Positions 5,267 through 36,912 of a stretch of 36,951 nucleotides of DNA are shown here, piece by piece. The notes below the pieces were generated by a model, which saw only the letters and a list, made by a program, of their open reading frames with translations, did not search any database and was not told where the DNA came from. The position numbers and the translations under genes were made by a program. The first letter of the stretch is position 1. Each line of letters begins with the position of its first letter. Origin of the DNA: Hyella patelloides LEGE 07179 (GTDB lineage: Bacteria > Cyanobacteriota > Cyanobacteriia > Cyanobacteriales > Xenococcaceae); the NCBI RefSeq assembly GCF_900659865.1, contig NZ_LR213801.1, positions 1 to 36,951 of the forward strand, written 5' to 3'.

Positions 5267-5370
5267 AAGAAATAAAATAATGTCAGACTGTTTTATTCAG
5301 ATGAATTATGAAGGATAAATTATGAAGAACTAAGAAATCACAAACAATTACAAGGAATGTACTATATCAA

Positions 5371-5589
5371 CTACTAATAATTAACTACTAAATAATAGAT
5401 AAAAATACCTGTTTTTTGATACCTGATCCTTCATCCCTTATCCTTCATCCTTTACTTATGCTGGATAGATTCGTAAACGACTACTAATGATTAACTACTA
5501 ATAATAGATAAAAATACCTGTTTTTTGATACTTCATCCTTCATCCCTTATCCTTCATACTTTACTTATGCTGGATAGATTCGTAAACGA
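5371..5589. repeat. 110-bp tandem duplication covering the 3' end of ycf45
   Basis: Copy 1 is 5371-5480 (110 bp) and copy 2 is 5481-5589 (109 bp). They differ at about four positions plus one 1-bp indel, so they are roughly 95% identical and directly adjacent. Copy 2 includes the last seven codons and stop of the ycf45-type gene (LRIYPA then TAA). Copy 1 carries the same codons as a detached remnant near 5456-5480. Each copy also contains degenerate heptads of the TTCATCC type. The pattern indicates a fairly recent tandem duplication. Confidence 0.93.
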
Positions 5590-7313
5590 CGGTTGGGTTC
5601 CTCGCCGAAGCTATCAGACTGTAAGCGATAATGCTCCACTAACTCATGTTGCATTTTTCTAACCTTTGCCGATCGCGGAAGTAATTCTACTGGTTGTCCT
5701 TGAGGAATCACTATTTGCTCTACAGCGAGTCTTGCTTCTTCTAACGCTTCGATTTCATCATCATTACCTGCTTTGGTAAAAAGACGCATATCGGTGGCTT
5801 CTGGTACATTAGGGTCATCTAAGTTAAGTAACTGCCGTAAAACCCTGGTTATTTGAGGAATAGTATTAGATTTAACTGCATGAATCGGCAAATGGTGATT
5901 TTTAGCTAACTGTCGCAAACGAGAATGGTGTTTAATCTGCGATCGCAAAGCAATGACGGCATCCGCACCATCCAAGTCTTTGGTTAACATTATAGGTAAA
6001 TCTAACACCCCAATTACCTGCTCTAACTGAGAGCGACCGATACCATAAGGATAGATATAAACGGGCCAATCTTCCCCATTAGGCCCTGGTGTCCGCAGCT
6101 TGTTACTATGAGGTTCTTGAGTTTGCCAAGAACTTTCTAGCATTTGCTCAAACTGAGGATTTTGCTTTTTTTTGCGCTTACTACCAAAACTGGCAACAGG
6201 GTTCATTTTACCCGATGCTCGCCAACCTCCAGGACCCAAAGAAGGAGTCATACTTCGATTTACTAGAGTGTTGGCATCAAGTTGAGCTTCTTCGTGGATG
6301 ACCGATACTTCCCCATTATCATTCACTGTACGAATCTGAGTTGCAGGTTCAATACCTCGTAATAAGGTATCGATAGTTTCTGCGGTGTCTTCATGAACTA
6401 CCCAGCGTTGTCTTTCCAGCATTTCTACAGCGATCGCAAAAGTAGGCGGTGCTTTGCGCTCTAGAACGGTTTTTTGCGATCTTCTACGTCTGGCTTCATC
6501 ATCTCCCAAGGTAACTGCTTGAACACCTCCTACCAAATCAGAAAGAGTAGGATTTTTCACTAAGTTAGCCAGGCTATTACCATGTGCCGTTCCTACTAAT
6601 TGGACACCTCGTTCGGCAATTGTACGGGCTGCGAGGGCTTCTAACTCGGTACTAATTTCATCAATTACAATCACTTCAGGCATATGGTTTTCCACCGCTT
6701 CGATCATTACCTGATGTTGCAACTCAGGACGAGCTACCTGCATCCGACGAGCGCGACCAATAGCAGGGTGAGGAATATCTCCATCTCCTGCAATTTCATT
6801 AGAAGTATCGATGATGACAACACGTTTATTCAAATCGTCTGCCAAAACTCTGGCAATTTCCCGCAAAGCAGTGGTTTTACCCACTCCAGGACGACCTAAA
6901 AGCAGTATTGATTGACCAGTTTCCACTAAGTCACGAATCATGACAATAGTGCCAAATACCGCCCGACCAATACGACAAGTCAGACCGATAATTTCTCCTG
7001 CGCGATTGCGAATTGCACTAATGCGATGGAGTGTTCTTTCAATACCAGCACGGTTATCAGCACCAAACATTCCTACTCGCTCAACGCAGTGTTGGATGTC
7101 TTCTTTGGTGATGGTTGATTCTCCTAAATATGTGACCTCATTATGAAAACGAGCTTCTGGTAATCGCCCCAAATCCATCACGATTTCAATTAGATTATCT
7201 TTTTGAGAATGACTATTAACTTGGGTGAGTATTGTCTCTGGTAATATTGCCAATAACTTTTCTAGGTTATCGGTAATTTGCATACGATGGGATGCTATTT
7301 TCTCTTGTGTCAT
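5565..7313 (-). CDS. ycf45: Ycf45-type AAA ATPase with C-terminal R3H domain
   Basis: This 582-residue protein resembles the Ycf45 family of cyanobacteria and some plastids, whose ATPase part is related to SpoIIIAA. The P-loop GRPGVGKTT is at 140-148 (K146), with Walker B VIVIDEI near 215. An arginine-rich block (DDEARRRRSQKTVLERK) follows. The C-terminus has an R3H nucleic-acid-binding segment (PRSAKVRKMQHELVEHY) and ends RRLRIYPA. The role is thought to involve nucleic-acid binding but is not settled. Its last codons are part of a tandem duplication extending downstream. ldpA lies immediately upstream on the same strand with a gap of about 270 bp. Confidence 0.92.
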   Translation of the reverse strand: MTQEKIASHRMQITDNLEKLLAILPETILTQVNSHSQKDNLIEIVMDLGRLPEARFHNEVTYLGESTITKEDIQHCVERVGMFGADNRAGIERTLHRISAIRNRAGEIIGLTCRIGRAVFGTIVMIRDLVETGQSILLLGRPGVGKTTALREIARVLADDLNKRVVIIDTSNEIAGDGDIPHPAIGRARRMQVARPELQHQVMIEAVENHMPEVIVIDEISTELEALAARTIAERGVQLVGTAHGNSLANLVKNPTLSDLVGGVQAVTLGDDEARRRRSQKTVLERKAPPTFAIAVEMLERQRWVVHEDTAETIDTLLRGIEPATQIRTVNDNGEVSVIHEEAQLDANTLVNRSMTPSLGPGGWRASGKMNPVASFGSKRKKKQNPQFEQMLESSWQTQEPHSNKLRTPGPNGEDWPVYIYPYGIGRSQLEQVIGVLDLPIMLTKDLDGADAVIALRSQIKHHSRLRQLAKNHHLPIHAVKSNTIPQITRVLRQLLNLDDPNVPEATDMRLFTKAGNDDEIEALEEARLAVEQIVIPQGQPVELLPRSAKVRKMQHELVEHYRLQSDSFGEEPNRRLRIYPA

Positions 7314-15943: not shown

Positions 15944-16006
15944 CTGGTAACTGGTAACTGGTAACTGATTACTGATTACTGATTACTGATTACTAGTCAC
16001 TGATAA
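15944..16006. repeat. Nine-unit heptanucleotide array at the GAF-MCP stop
   Basis: Nine consecutive 7-base units read on the plus strand as three CTGGTAA, four CTGATTA, then CTAGTCA and CTGATAA. The array ends 7 bp from the stop codon of the MCP gene (16014-16016). In the gene's sense direction the units are of the AGTNNNN class seen after other genes in this window. Confidence 0.92.
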
Positions 16007-16013
16007 CTGAAAA

Positions 16014-32924: not shown

Positions 32925-32952
32925 AGTTATCAGTTATCAGTCATTAGTCAAA
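32925..32952. repeat. Heptanucleotide repeat after the HTH-NTPase stop
   Basis: Four units, AGTTATC, AGTTATC, AGTCATT and AGTCAAA, begin 23 bp after the TAA stop. They read in the sense direction of the upstream gene and belong to the AGTNNNN class. Confidence 0.85.
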
Positions 32953-33170: not shown

Positions 33171-35321
33171 ATGCAAGAAATTGATAAATCCATACCCTTT
33201 GATGGTAGGGATATTAGTCTGAAAGTAGGCTTGCTCGCACCACAAGCAGGCGGTTCAGTATTAATCCAAGCGGGAGACACAGCAGTTTTAGTCAACGCCA
33301 CCCGAGCCCAAGGAAGAGAAGGAATAGATTTTTTACCATTAATTGTTGATTATGAAGAAAAATTATATGCAGTAGGAAAAATACCAGGGGGGTTTTTACG
33401 TAGAGAAGGTAGACCTCCAGAAAGAGCAACCCTAACCAGTCGCTTGATAGATCGCCCACTGCGTCCTTTGCTTCCTTCTTGGTTAAGAGATGATATTCAA
33501 ATTGTAGCAACTACTTTATCTTTAGATGAAGATGTACCACCAGATGTCTTAGCGGTCACGGGTGCTTCGGTGGCGGTGCTGTTGGCGCAAATTCCTTTTT
33601 ATGGTCCAATGGCAGCAGTGAGAGTAGGCTTAATTGGAGATGATTTTATTCTCAATCCTTCCTATCGGGAAGTCGAGCAAGGAGAACTAGATTTAGTGGT
33701 CGCTGGTAGTCCTGATGGCGTAATCATGGTAGAAGCAGGAGCTAACCAACTACCAGAAGAAGATATTATCGAAGCGATTGATTTTGGTTACGAAGCAGTC
33801 CAAGAATTAATTCAGGCTCAAAGAGACTTAATTAAAGAGCTAGGGATTGAGATTGTCAAAGCTGAACTCCCTGAAGAAAATGAAGCTTTAAAACAGTTTA
33901 TCAGCGATCGCGTAACTGACGATATTAAGCAAATTCTTTCTAAGTATGACTTGGATAAAAAAGGTCGTGACACTGCCTTAGATGTTATTAAAGCAGAGAA
34001 AATTGAATCAGAGATCGCCGAATTGCCAGAAGAAGACCCCATCAAAACTGCTACTATAGAAGATTCTAAAGCGATCGGCAAATACTTTAAAGCTCTTACC
34101 AAAAAGCTGATGCGAAGTCAGATTGTTGAAGACGGAATTAGGGTAGATGGACGAAAACTAGATGAAGTACGCCCCATTTCCTGTCAAGTAGGATTGCTCC
34201 CCCGTAGGGTTCATGGTTGCGGACTCTTTAAAAGAGGACTGACCCAAGTTCTTTCTCTGGCAACTTTAGGTACTTCAGGAGATGCCCAAGACTTAGGAGA
34301 CGATCTCCATCCCACATCAGAAAAACGCTATCTGCATCACTATAACTTTCCTCCTTTTTCTGTAGGAGAAACTAAACCTTTACGTTCTCCTGGTCGTCGC
34401 GAAATTGGTCATGGTGCATTAGCAGAACGTTCTTTGATGCCAGTGTTACCCTCTCAAGAAGAATTCCCCTATGTATTGCGGGTAGTCTCCGAAGTCTTAT
34501 CTTCCAACGGCTCTACCTCGATGGGTTCGGTATGTGGTTCGACTCTCTCTTTGATGGATGCAGGTGTTCCCATTACTAAACCTGTTAGTGGAGCAGCAAT
34601 GGGGTTAATTAAAGAAGAAGATGAGGTGCGTATCCTGACTGATATTCAAGGAATTGAAGACTTTCTAGGCGATATGGACTTTAAAGTTGCAGGGACAGAT
34701 AGCGGTATTACTGCTTTGCAAATGGATATGAAGATTACGGGATTGTCAATGGACATCATAGCCAAAGCAATTCATCAGGCATTACCCGCAAGAATGCATA
34801 TCCTAGAGAAAATGCTCGAAGCGATTGATAAACCTCGTGAAGAACTTTCTCCCTTTGCACCAAGATTATTAACCCTCAAAATCGATCCCGATCTGATTGG
34901 CATGGTTATTGGCCCTTCTGGTAAAACCATTAAAGCTATTGTGGAACAAACCGATTCTAAAATTGATATTGAAGATGATGGTACGGTAATTATTGCAGCA
35001 GTAGAAGCAGAAAAAGCTGAAAGAGCGAAAAAACTGATCTACAATATGACTCGCAAACTAAATGAAGGAGATGTTTATCTGGGAAAAGTAACCAGAATCA
35101 TCGATATCGGTGCATTTGTGGAAGTGTTACCAGGCAAAGAAGGCATGATCCATATTTCTCAACTAGCAGAAGGCAGAGTGGGTAAAGTGGAAGATGAAGT
35201 GGCTGTAGGGGATGAAATTGTGGTGAAAGTTCGCAACTTTGACAACAAAGGTCGCCTTAACTTGACTCGCTTGGGTATCCATCCTGATGAAGCAGCCAAA
35301 GCTAGAGCGGAAGCAGAATAA
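33171..35321 (+). CDS. pnp: Polyribonucleotide nucleotidyltransferase (PNPase)
   Basis: This 716-residue enzyme degrades RNA 3' to 5' using phosphate and can also add tails. Two RNase PH domains are present: the first near 10-140 ([33 protein letters not shown]), the second near 325-540 ([31 protein letters not shown]). A KH domain ([16 protein letters not shown]) and an S1 domain ([21 protein letters not shown]) follow. Length is normal. The ATG is preceded by AAGGA at 33155-33159. The gene stands alone, convergent with the MoaB-type gene. Heptads and a hairpin follow its stop. In cyanobacteria PNPase is a main RNA-turnover and polyadenylation enzyme. Confidence 0.97.
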
Positions 35322-35324
35322 TCA

Positions 35325-35366
35325 GCGAACAGTGACCAGTTATTAGTCATCAGTGAATAGTGAACA
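35325..35366. repeat. Heptanucleotide array directly after the pnp stop
   Basis: Six consecutive units (AGCGAAC, AGTGACC, AGTTATT, AGTCATC, AGTGAAT, AGTGAAC) begin 3 bp after the pnp stop codon, in the sense direction of pnp. Confidence 0.9.
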
Positions 35367-35368
35367 GT

Positions 35369-35398
35369 GCAATTCAATAAACAGTTTCATTGAACTGC
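35369..35398 (+). terminator. Hairpin between convergent pnp and moaB
   Basis: GCAATTCAAT (35369-35378) pairs with ATTGAACTGC (35389-35398) at nine of ten positions around a 10-base loop. A T-rich stretch follows about 15 bases later on the plus strand. It probably helps terminate pnp and may act in both directions. Confidence 0.45.
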
Positions 35399-35452
35399 TA
35401 TCTTAAAAATACTTCCTTTTTTATCAAGCGAGTATTTAAACCTAAAAGTTGG

Positions 35453-35480
35453 TGATAACTGATAACTGATAACCGATCAC
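35453..35480. repeat. Heptanucleotide repeat at the moaB stop
   Basis: Three TGATAAC units and one CGATCAC on the plus strand overlap the TGA stop of the MoaB-type gene. In that gene's sense direction they contain the same AGTTATC core seen elsewhere. Confidence 0.85.
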
Positions 35481-35983
35481 TGTTGTAACTGTTTAACTAA
35501 GTGAACTACTTCTGGCAAAATAAGCTCTGTCATACCTAGCTTGACTGCATTAGAAGAGCCTGGAAGAGAAAAAATTAGTTTATCTTGGTAGACACCTGCG
35601 ATCGCTCTTAAAGCGATCGCTCTTGAACCAATATCGTGAAAACTAAGATGGCGGAAAATTTCCCCGAATCCTGGTAAAGTTTTATCTAGTAAACTAGCGA
35701 TCGCATCATAAGTAGTGTCTCTCGGTGCAATTCCCGTACCACCATTAAAAATAAACACATCTGAAGGAGTATCCTTAGATAACTGTTTTATTTGGTCTTT
35801 AATTGCCTTTGGTTCGTCCTCTACAATGCCATAAGCAGCTATCTCATGACCAGCATCAGTCAATAATTGCTGAATGATTTGACCACTTTTATCAGTTTCT
35901 TCTGTACGAGTATCGCTCACTGTAATAACGACACATTGAAGAGTAACTCCTTCTTTATCTGGGTGAGGTTTGTAATTCATCAA
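35477..35983 (-). CDS. moaB: MoaB/Mog-type molybdopterin biosynthesis protein
   Basis: This 168-residue protein belongs to the MoaB/MogA family, which activates molybdopterin by adenylylation for molybdenum insertion. The family motif FNGGTGIAPRDTT is at 79-91, preceded by VVITVSDTRTEE. The LPGFGEIFRHLSF and LIFSLPGSSNAV blocks are also typical. MoaB and Mog cannot be firmly separated here; the length fits MoaB. The second Met is an equally likely start. Three HIP1 octamers lie within 107 bp of the gene, two of them in a short direct repeat encoding RAIALRAIAG. It is convergent with pnp and followed (upstream on the same strand) by psb28. Confidence 0.93.
   Translation of the reverse strand: MMNYKPHPDKEGVTLQCVVITVSDTRTEETDKSGQIIQQLLTDAGHEIAAYGIVEDEPKAIKDQIKQLSKDTPSDVFIFNGGTGIAPRDTTYDAIASLLDKTLPGFGEIFRHLSFHDIGSRAIALRAIAGVYQDKLIFSLPGSSNAVKLGMTELILPEVVHLVKQLQQ
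35598..35620. repeat. Two HIP1 octamers in a short direct repeat
   Basis: GCGATCGC occurs at 35598-35605 and 35613-35620, in a 15-bp direct repeat inside moaB; a third copy is at 35697-35704. HIP1 is an over-represented octamer in many cyanobacteria and supports the taxonomic call. Confidence 0.9.
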
Positions 35984-36060: not shown

Positions 36061-36089
36061 CTGGTCACTCGTAACTGATTACTGAATTA
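36061..36089. repeat. Heptanucleotide repeat at the psb28 stop
   Basis: CTGGTCA, CTCGTAA and CTGATTA are followed by a partial unit that runs into the psb28 stop codon. In psb28 sense the units read AGTAATC, AGTTACG, AGTGACC. Confidence 0.85.
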
Positions 36090-36422
36090 GGATTTTTCTA
36101 AACCCAAACCATTTTCTTCTGCATATCGTTCCATAAAACGTAGGAAACGTTCCCACTCAGCAGCAGAAGTCATAATTAATTTTGATTCGATAGCGGAAGG
36201 TTTACCGTTAATAAATTTTCCTTTAACGTCGCGACTAACAATTTCCCCTTCACTATCCACCAGATATAAACCCGTGATTTCTACCGTGCTAGTATCAGCA
36301 AGAGCATCAGGGGCATCGAAATAGAAAGTAGCTGTACCACCATCTTTATTACGGGAGCGTGTAACTTTAATATTAGGGACTACGCTTTCTTTTGTCCCTT
36401 TAGAAAATTGGATTTCTGCCAT
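36087..36422 (-). CDS. psb28: Photosystem II assembly factor Psb28
   Basis: This 111-residue protein matches Psb28 (Psb13/Ycf79), which binds PSII assembly intermediates containing CP47 on the cytoplasmic side and protects them during assembly and repair. Family blocks are present: [33 protein letters not shown], then [27 protein letters not shown], and [18 protein letters not shown] near the C-terminus. Length is typical and no signal peptide is expected. It lies upstream of moaB on the minus strand; the gap of about 100 bp contains heptads at its own stop. A TATCTC/GAGATA hairpin lies 45-60 bp before the ATG. Confidence 0.96.
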
Positions 36423-36838: not shown

Positions 36839-36912
36839 GGGGAAAAGGGGAAAGGGAAAAGGTTAAAGCTTTATATAACGAGCCTTTCTCCCTTTACCTT
36901 TAACCTTTAACC
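36839..36912. repeat. Purine/pyrimidine inverted repeat with heptads
   Basis: GGTTAAAG (36861-36868) matches CTTTAACC at 36898-36905 and 36905-36912. The left side is a G-rich run with three blocks of three or four G and one GG. The right side repeats a 7-base CTTTAAC unit. It may form a large imperfect hairpin. Confidence 0.5.

What the first reader, a model, noticed from the sequence alone, without database searches (positions are those of the whole stretch)
35325..35480. Stop-codon-anchored heptads always in the sense orientation of the upstream gene
Arrays of AGTNNNN start within about 25 bp of the stops of pnp, the HTH-NTPase (32925-32952), the GAF-MCP (15944-16006), moaB (35453-35480) and psb28 (36061-36089). 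On both strands they read the same way relative to the gene, even for convergent pnp and moaB. Many units contain TAA or TGA, and because 7 is not a multiple of 3, an array places stops in all frames. They may be 3'-UTR elements or read-through barriers rather than random satellites.
Basis: partly seen in the sequence, partly recalled or inferred. Interest (0 to 1): 0.65.

Follow-up and report, generated by a model that had tools for sequence, protein, structure and literature searches.

The report
Seven-base repeats pointing away from genes
Short seven-base tandem repeats common in cyanobacteria sit against gene ends and almost always point away from the gene, at gene starts as well as gene stops, so they are a known kind of repeat with an odd placement rule and not stop-codon read-through barriers.

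Summary
The five AGTNNNN arrays are real. All lie within 22 bp of a stop codon and read in the sense of the gene that ends there. They are cyanobacterial heptameric STRRs: AGTTATC is the reverse complement of the described TAACTGA repeat.

A scan of 2.4 Mb of this genome, 280 kb of another family and 34 named cyanobacterial loci confirms the bias near stops: 40 sense to 7 antisense within 30 bp in co-directional gene pairs, window excluded. That is half of a two-sided rule: within 30 bp upstream of starts the arrays are antisense, 36 to 1. The AGT strand points away from the coding sequence, and array 5' ends pile up within 15 bp of coding edges. In region interiors there is no bias.

So the arrays are not always sense, and a read-through barrier is not supported: the other strand carries as many stops. 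Rehm et al. 2015 reported the same two-sided placement for G-quadruplex heptads. Here it holds without G-tracts and for GC-balanced arrays, so neither G-quadruplexes nor GC skew can be the general cause. Hairpin co-adaptation, 5'-3' UTR pairing and UTR composition alone also fail. Directional array growth plus selection at coding edges fits best, but is weakly supported.

The parts
35331..35372 (+). AGTNNNN array (6 units) after the pnp stop (35321), sense to pnp, pointing away from pnp
35454..35481 (-). AGTNNNN array (TAACTGA type, 4 units, 3 exact AGT) overlapping the moaB stop, sense to moaB
36063..36083 (-). AGTNNNN array (3 units) 3 bp after the psb28 stop, sense to psb28
32925..32952 (+). 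AGTNNNN array (4 units) 22 bp after the stop of the HTH/AAA gene, sense to it; degenerate units lie closer
15946..16008 (-). AGTNNNN array (9 units) 5 bp after the GAF-MCP stop, sense to it
33171..35321 (+). pnp (polyribonucleotide nucleotidyltransferase)
   Evidence: Pfam RNase_PH, PNPase, KH_1, S1
35477..35983 (-). moaB-like (MoCF_biosynth); its stop codon TGA is inside the first heptad
36087..36422 (-). psb28
   Evidence: Pfam Psb28

Best explanation
The arrays are heptameric short tandem repeats (STRRs) of the kind known from cyanobacteria: fast-turnover, lineage-specific intergenic satellites with no gene-specific role. Shown: their placement follows a two-sided rule. The 5' end of the AGT strand abuts a coding edge, either after a stop or just before a start, so the array points into the intergenic region; in region interiors orientation is random. 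Inferred: arrays arise by slippage in intergenic DNA and gain or extend units preferentially at the AGT-strand 5' end until a coding sequence blocks them, because growth into it is purged. Selection for an unstructured leader additionally removes AGT-sense arrays just upstream of starts. The orientation is therefore a by-product of array growth and of selection at coding edges, not a stop-codon signal.
For: Period 7 is unique in intergenic DNA. The two-sided bias is 40:7 at stops and 36:1 at starts, window excluded, and appears in a second family (8:0 and 5:0). In co-directional regions, arrays within 15 bp of a stop and more than 30 bp from a start are 36 AGT-sense to 1; those within 30 bp of a start and more than 15 bp from a stop are 1 to 36; in long-region interiors 18:21. 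Array 5' ends within 15 bp of an edge number 52 against 12.7 expected (stop) and 32 against 11.8 (start), with no excess at 16-30 bp. Pure arrays are 18:0 away, so the bias is present in young arrays; single heptamers in heptad-free regions show none (40:38, 28:24). Arrays not G-rich on the AGT strand also obey (own 24:3, G103 7:0). In arrays with room on both sides the 3' flank keeps more degenerate periodicity than the 5' flank (0.503 vs 0.446, p=0.049). Leader RNA with the array in ACT sense is more open than with it reversed (P unpaired 0.66 vs 0.49, p=6e-5). After pnp, other lineages have different heptads or none.
Against: There is no gradient of unit identity inside arrays (first pair 3.33 of 4, last pair 3.37), and the flank asymmetry is marginal. 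Near starts 3' ends are depleted even after allowing for the 5' pile-up (6 against about 16 expected within 60 bp), so growth alone does not suffice. Convergent stops show a weaker bias (12:6, window excluded; not significant). Growth direction was not observed in any pair of close strains.
Confidence: 0.45

Rival explanations
1. Pure selection on UTR function. Arrays arise in both orientations anywhere, and those in the wrong orientation near starts (structured, G- or AGT-bearing leader) or near stops are removed because they harm translation initiation or mRNA processing.
For: ACT-sense arrays keep the start region open and the reversed orientation closes it; array-bearing leaders are more open than other leaders (0.647 vs 0.516). 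Heptad-free UTRs have a weak GC skew of the same sign. 3' ends are depleted near starts.
Against: It gives no reason for the equally sharp bias within 15 bp of stops when the next start is more than 100 bp away (22:1). Base composition predicts only 21.0 of 35 and 17.4 of 27, against 30 and 26 observed. The pile-up exceeds uniform expectation fourfold at stops, which removal of wrong arrays alone does not produce.
Confidence: 0.3
2. Intercistronic or bidirectional RNA hairpins. Inward-facing arrays pair in the transcript and act as processing, stabilising or terminating structures.
For: Two arrays in one co-directional region always face inward (15:0) and co-occur more than expected (18 against 3.3). 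The pnp-moaB region folds with z -3.31, with the two arrays as the long stem. Such hairpins have been proposed for cyanobacterial STRRs (PMC2670836).
Against: Paired arrays are no more complementary than swapped partners (-9.0 vs -9.25 kcal/mol, p=0.58). Single arrays without a partner show the same bias (stop 21:5, start 20:0). No terminator-like site lies in the pnp-moaB region.
Confidence: 0.12
3. 3'-UTR element or read-through barrier tied to the stop codon.
For: Sense orientation within 30 bp of stops, 40:7 without the window. Some units hold TAA, TAG or TGA.
Against: Mirror-image bias at starts (36:1). Stop content is no higher on the chosen strand (10 of 30 against 12 of 30). Not conserved after pnp.
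Confidence: 0.05
4. Remnants of mobile elements with inverted heptad ends inserted in intergenic regions.
For: Inward-facing pairs; array-bearing regions hold multi-copy dispersed repeats somewhat more often than length-matched ones (0.34 vs 0.24).
Against: No common body links the arrays; units and spacers differ between loci. Rehm et al. found no association with mobile elements for G-rich heptads (PMC4692102).
Confidence: 0.08

Closest known systems
Cyanobacterial heptameric short tandemly repeated repetitive sequences (STRRs)
   Same: 7-bp tandem units, intergenic, lineage-specific, proposed to form hairpins
   Different: The two-sided orientation rule is quantified here for AGTNNNN units; I found no such statistic for STRRs in the open papers searched
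GGGAATC / GGGGA(C/T)T G-rich heptads of Xanthomonas and Nostoc PCC 7120 (Rehm et al. 2015, PMC4692102)
   Same: Within 50 bp before ORFs on the antisense strand or within 50 bp after stops on the sense strand; closer to the ORF on their 5' side whatever the ORF orientation
   Different: Those form G-quadruplexes; AGTNNNN arrays mostly have no G-tracts, so the rule does not need them
TAACTGA direct repeats of Beggiatoaceae, cyanobacteria and Bacteroidetes (MacGregor 2015, PMC4679880)
   Same: TAACTGA is the reverse complement, in another register, of AGTTATC; found just upstream of starts, which is the start half of the rule
   Different: There read as a translation-control site; the stop-side half was noted only in single cases

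Membership tests
Cyanobacterial heptameric STRR | Tandem direct repeats with a 7-bp period | tested here: met
   220 period-7 intergenic arrays against at most 13 at other non-multiple periods
Cyanobacterial heptameric STRR | Intergenic, dispersed, many copies | tested here: met
   Strict arrays: 9 of 120 inside genes; 137 intergenic arrays (gap allowed) against 17-29 in shuffles
Cyanobacterial heptameric STRR | Lineage-specific and poorly conserved in position | tested here: met
   Array after pnp absent or of a different unit in relatives
TAACTGA repeats | Unit TAACTGA in tandem | tested here: met
   The moaB array reads TGATAACTGATAACTGATAAC on the + strand; the other arrays mix variants
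TAACTGA repeats | TAACTGA strand oriented towards a nearby start codon | tested here: inconclusive
   True for start-proximal AGT/ACT arrays genome-wide (36:1); the window arrays are the stop-side kind, which MacGregor reports as rare
G-rich G4 heptads (Rehm 2015) | G-tracts of 3 or more in each unit | tested here: not met
   Units AGTTATC, AGTAATC, AGTGAAC and AGTCATT have no G-tract
G-rich G4 heptads (Rehm 2015) | Antisense before starts, sense after stops, close to the ORF on the 5' side | tested here: met
Intrinsic terminator | G+C-rich stem followed by a T-run | tested here: not met
   No terminator-like site in the pnp-moaB intergenic region

The most novel reading that the evidence does not exclude
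Heptad arrays are built by a strand-polar process that adds seven-base units at the 5' side of the AGT (or G) strand until a coding sequence stops it. The same rule in cyanobacteria and, per Rehm et al., in Xanthomonas, for unrelated units, would then reflect a general and undescribed mode of short-repeat synthesis in bacteria.
Probability: 0.2. Interest if true: 0.75.

Novelty: new member of a known kind. Interest (0 to 1): 0.4.

Why it matters
The placement rule reported for G-quadruplex heptads turns out to hold for ordinary AGT heptads in two cyanobacterial families and in pooled named loci. That removes G-quadruplexes and GC skew as general causes and moves the question to how heptad arrays grow or are filtered at gene edges, which can be tested with closely related genomes. 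It also warns against reading such arrays as stop-codon or start-codon signals one gene at a time.

Tried and rejected
Read-through barrier: stop content equal on both strands. Hairpin co-adaptation of paired arrays: no better than swapped partners. 5'-3' UTR pairing across one gene: 2 genes with both arrays, 1.0 expected. UTR base composition as sole cause: too weak. Single heptamers as binding sites: no orientation bias outside arrays. Array seeded by the stop codon: no sharp 7-bp register and ordinary stop-codon use. Mobile-element origin: array-bearing regions hold multi-copy dispersed repeats somewhat more often than length-matched regions (0.34 vs 0.24), with no shared element at the arrays; left open. 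Unit-identity gradient as proof of directional growth: none. An early impression that the bias was absent at convergent and divergent edges came partly from spurious short ORFs and weakened with stricter gene calls. My reversal test of the array with untouched flanks overstated the structure change, because neighbouring unreversed heptads pair with it; the trimmed version is the one to use.

Full report
What was checked. The window is the whole contig C36 (36,951 bp) of an 8.06 Mb, 675-contig cyanobacterial genome. By its pnp gene the closest named relative is a Xenococcaceae MAG (92% identity). The five arrays exist at the stated places and orientation, and the gene names hold. Two small corrections: the moaB stop codon lies inside the first unit of its array (AGTGATC), and the HTH/AAA gene's array starts 22 bp after the stop, although degenerate units begin sooner.

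Genome-wide test. I sampled 72 contigs (2.40 Mb) of the genome and called genes with a dicodon-based caller. I added 280 kb of genome G103, of another family in the same order, and 585 kb of pnp-centred loci from 34 named cyanobacterial records. Period 7 stands alone in intergenic DNA. Intergenic AGT arrays of three or more contiguous units number 105 against 3-9 in shuffles. Related genomes across the order have the pattern too: 109 of 120 genomes have at least one four-unit match, with very uneven numbers.

The real rule. Within 30 bp of a coding edge, between co-directional genes, arrays are sense after stops (43:7; 40:7 without the window) and antisense before starts (36:1). Both are the same statement: the AGT strand points away from the coding sequence. 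The table shows how sharp it is: within 15 bp of the stop and more than 30 bp from the next start, 36 to 1; within 30 bp of the start and more than 15 bp from the stop, 1 to 36; interior, 18 to 21. Against uniform placement, 5' ends pile up within 15 bp of stops (52 against 12.7) and starts (32 against 11.8), with nothing extra at 16-30 bp. Two arrays in the same co-directional region always face inward (15:0). Convergent stops give 12:6 without the window, in the same direction but not significant alone.

What it is not. It is not a stop barrier: stops in all frames occur in 10 of 30 stop-proximal arrays on the sense strand and 12 of 30 on the other. It is not a G-quadruplex or GC-skew effect in general: arrays that are not G-rich on the AGT strand obey (own 24:3, G103 7:0). 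Heptad-free UTR composition predicts 21.0 of 35 and 17.4 of 27 away, against 30 and 26 observed. It is not a property of the heptamer as a single site (40:38 and 28:24 outside arrays). It is not driven by hairpin pairing of the two arrays (real -9.0, swapped -9.25 kcal/mol), although the pnp-moaB region itself folds unusually well (z -3.31). Pairing of 5' and 3' UTRs of one gene is not enriched (2 against 1.0).

Mechanism. Young, pure arrays are fully biased (18:0), so the bias is not the slow result of decay. The sharp abutment of 5' ends, at both kinds of edge, is what one would expect if arrays extend at the AGT 5' side until a coding sequence makes further growth harmful. The supporting asymmetry is weak: flanks 0.503 vs 0.446, p=0.049, and no gradient of unit identity. 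At starts there is a clear added reason: ACT-sense arrays leave the start region open, AGT-sense arrays would close it (0.66 vs 0.49, p=6e-5), and 3' ends are depleted there. I therefore commit, at 0.45, to known STRR satellites whose orientation reflects directional growth plus selection at coding edges. Growth direction is inferred, not shown. Selection on UTR function alone is the strongest rival (0.3).

Relation to known work. STRR heptads are long known in cyanobacteria (PMC2670836 and references therein). TAACTGA repeats, the reverse complement of AGTTATC in another register, were described by MacGregor 2015 (PMC4679880), mostly just upstream of start codons in Beggiatoaceae, with mixed placement in cyanobacteria. 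Rehm et al. 2015 (PMC4692102) reported for G-rich heptads in two Xanthomonas and in Nostoc PCC 7120 the very rule found here: antisense within 50 bp before ORFs, sense within 50 bp after stops, and closer to the ORF on the repeat's 5' side whatever the ORF orientation. The finding is thus a new member of a known kind. What it adds is that the rule also holds for arrays without the G-tracts needed for G-quadruplexes and for arrays without GC skew, with a sharp 15-bp pile-up of 5' ends.

Limits. Gene calls are my own, not official annotation; short spurious ORFs blur convergent and divergent classes, and stricter calls were used for the totals. Named loci are centred on one gene, and on their own they are too few to prove the stop half (3:2 within 30 bp). 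The sample is about 30% of the genome and favours large contigs, and part of the first batch was chosen because it held arrays, which affects counts but should not affect orientation. Many tests were run on the same arrays; p-values near 0.05 should be read as suggestive only.

Noticed in passing
own genome, AGC-anchored arrays: AGCNNNN heptads (many with the palindromic core AGCT, e.g. AAGCTAT, AAGCTCT) are enriched between convergent genes: 45 of 162 intergenic arrays against 9 of 110 for AGT arrays (Fisher p=5e-5). They show no clear orientation bias and may work as terminator-like hairpins.
   Followed up: partly
window 36840-36912: Inward-facing G-rich (GGGAAAA) and C-rich (CCTTTAA) heptads upstream of psb28 near the contig end, the same layout in another heptad family.
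   Followed up: no
window 5370-5590: A 109-bp unit in two tandem copies (95% matches) holding CCTTATCCTTCATC heptads, between two genes on the - strand.
   Followed up: no
own genome, e.g. C5:13611-13714, C5:14117-14236, C30:28721-28826: A small dispersed hairpin TCCCGCTTGACGGGA (12 copies in 2.4 Mb) lies beside or inside ACT heptads; 9 copies carry AGT/ACT directly at the end.
   Followed up: partly
L139, L141, L144, L145, L147, L182, L189 after the pnp stop: Nostocales share a conserved stem-loop (ATTTTAGATT..AATCTAAAAT followed by GCGATGCC..GGCATCGC) after pnp, where the window genome has heptads.
   Followed up: no
L143, L146, L137, L131 after the pnp stop: Different lineages carry unrelated G-bearing heptads or similar short repeats after the pnp stop (GGGGAYT, AGTCAAA, AGTCAGG, TTTGGGTAG), some directly at the stop and some tens of bp downstream, which suggests repeated independent origin at the same gene end.
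   Followed up: partly
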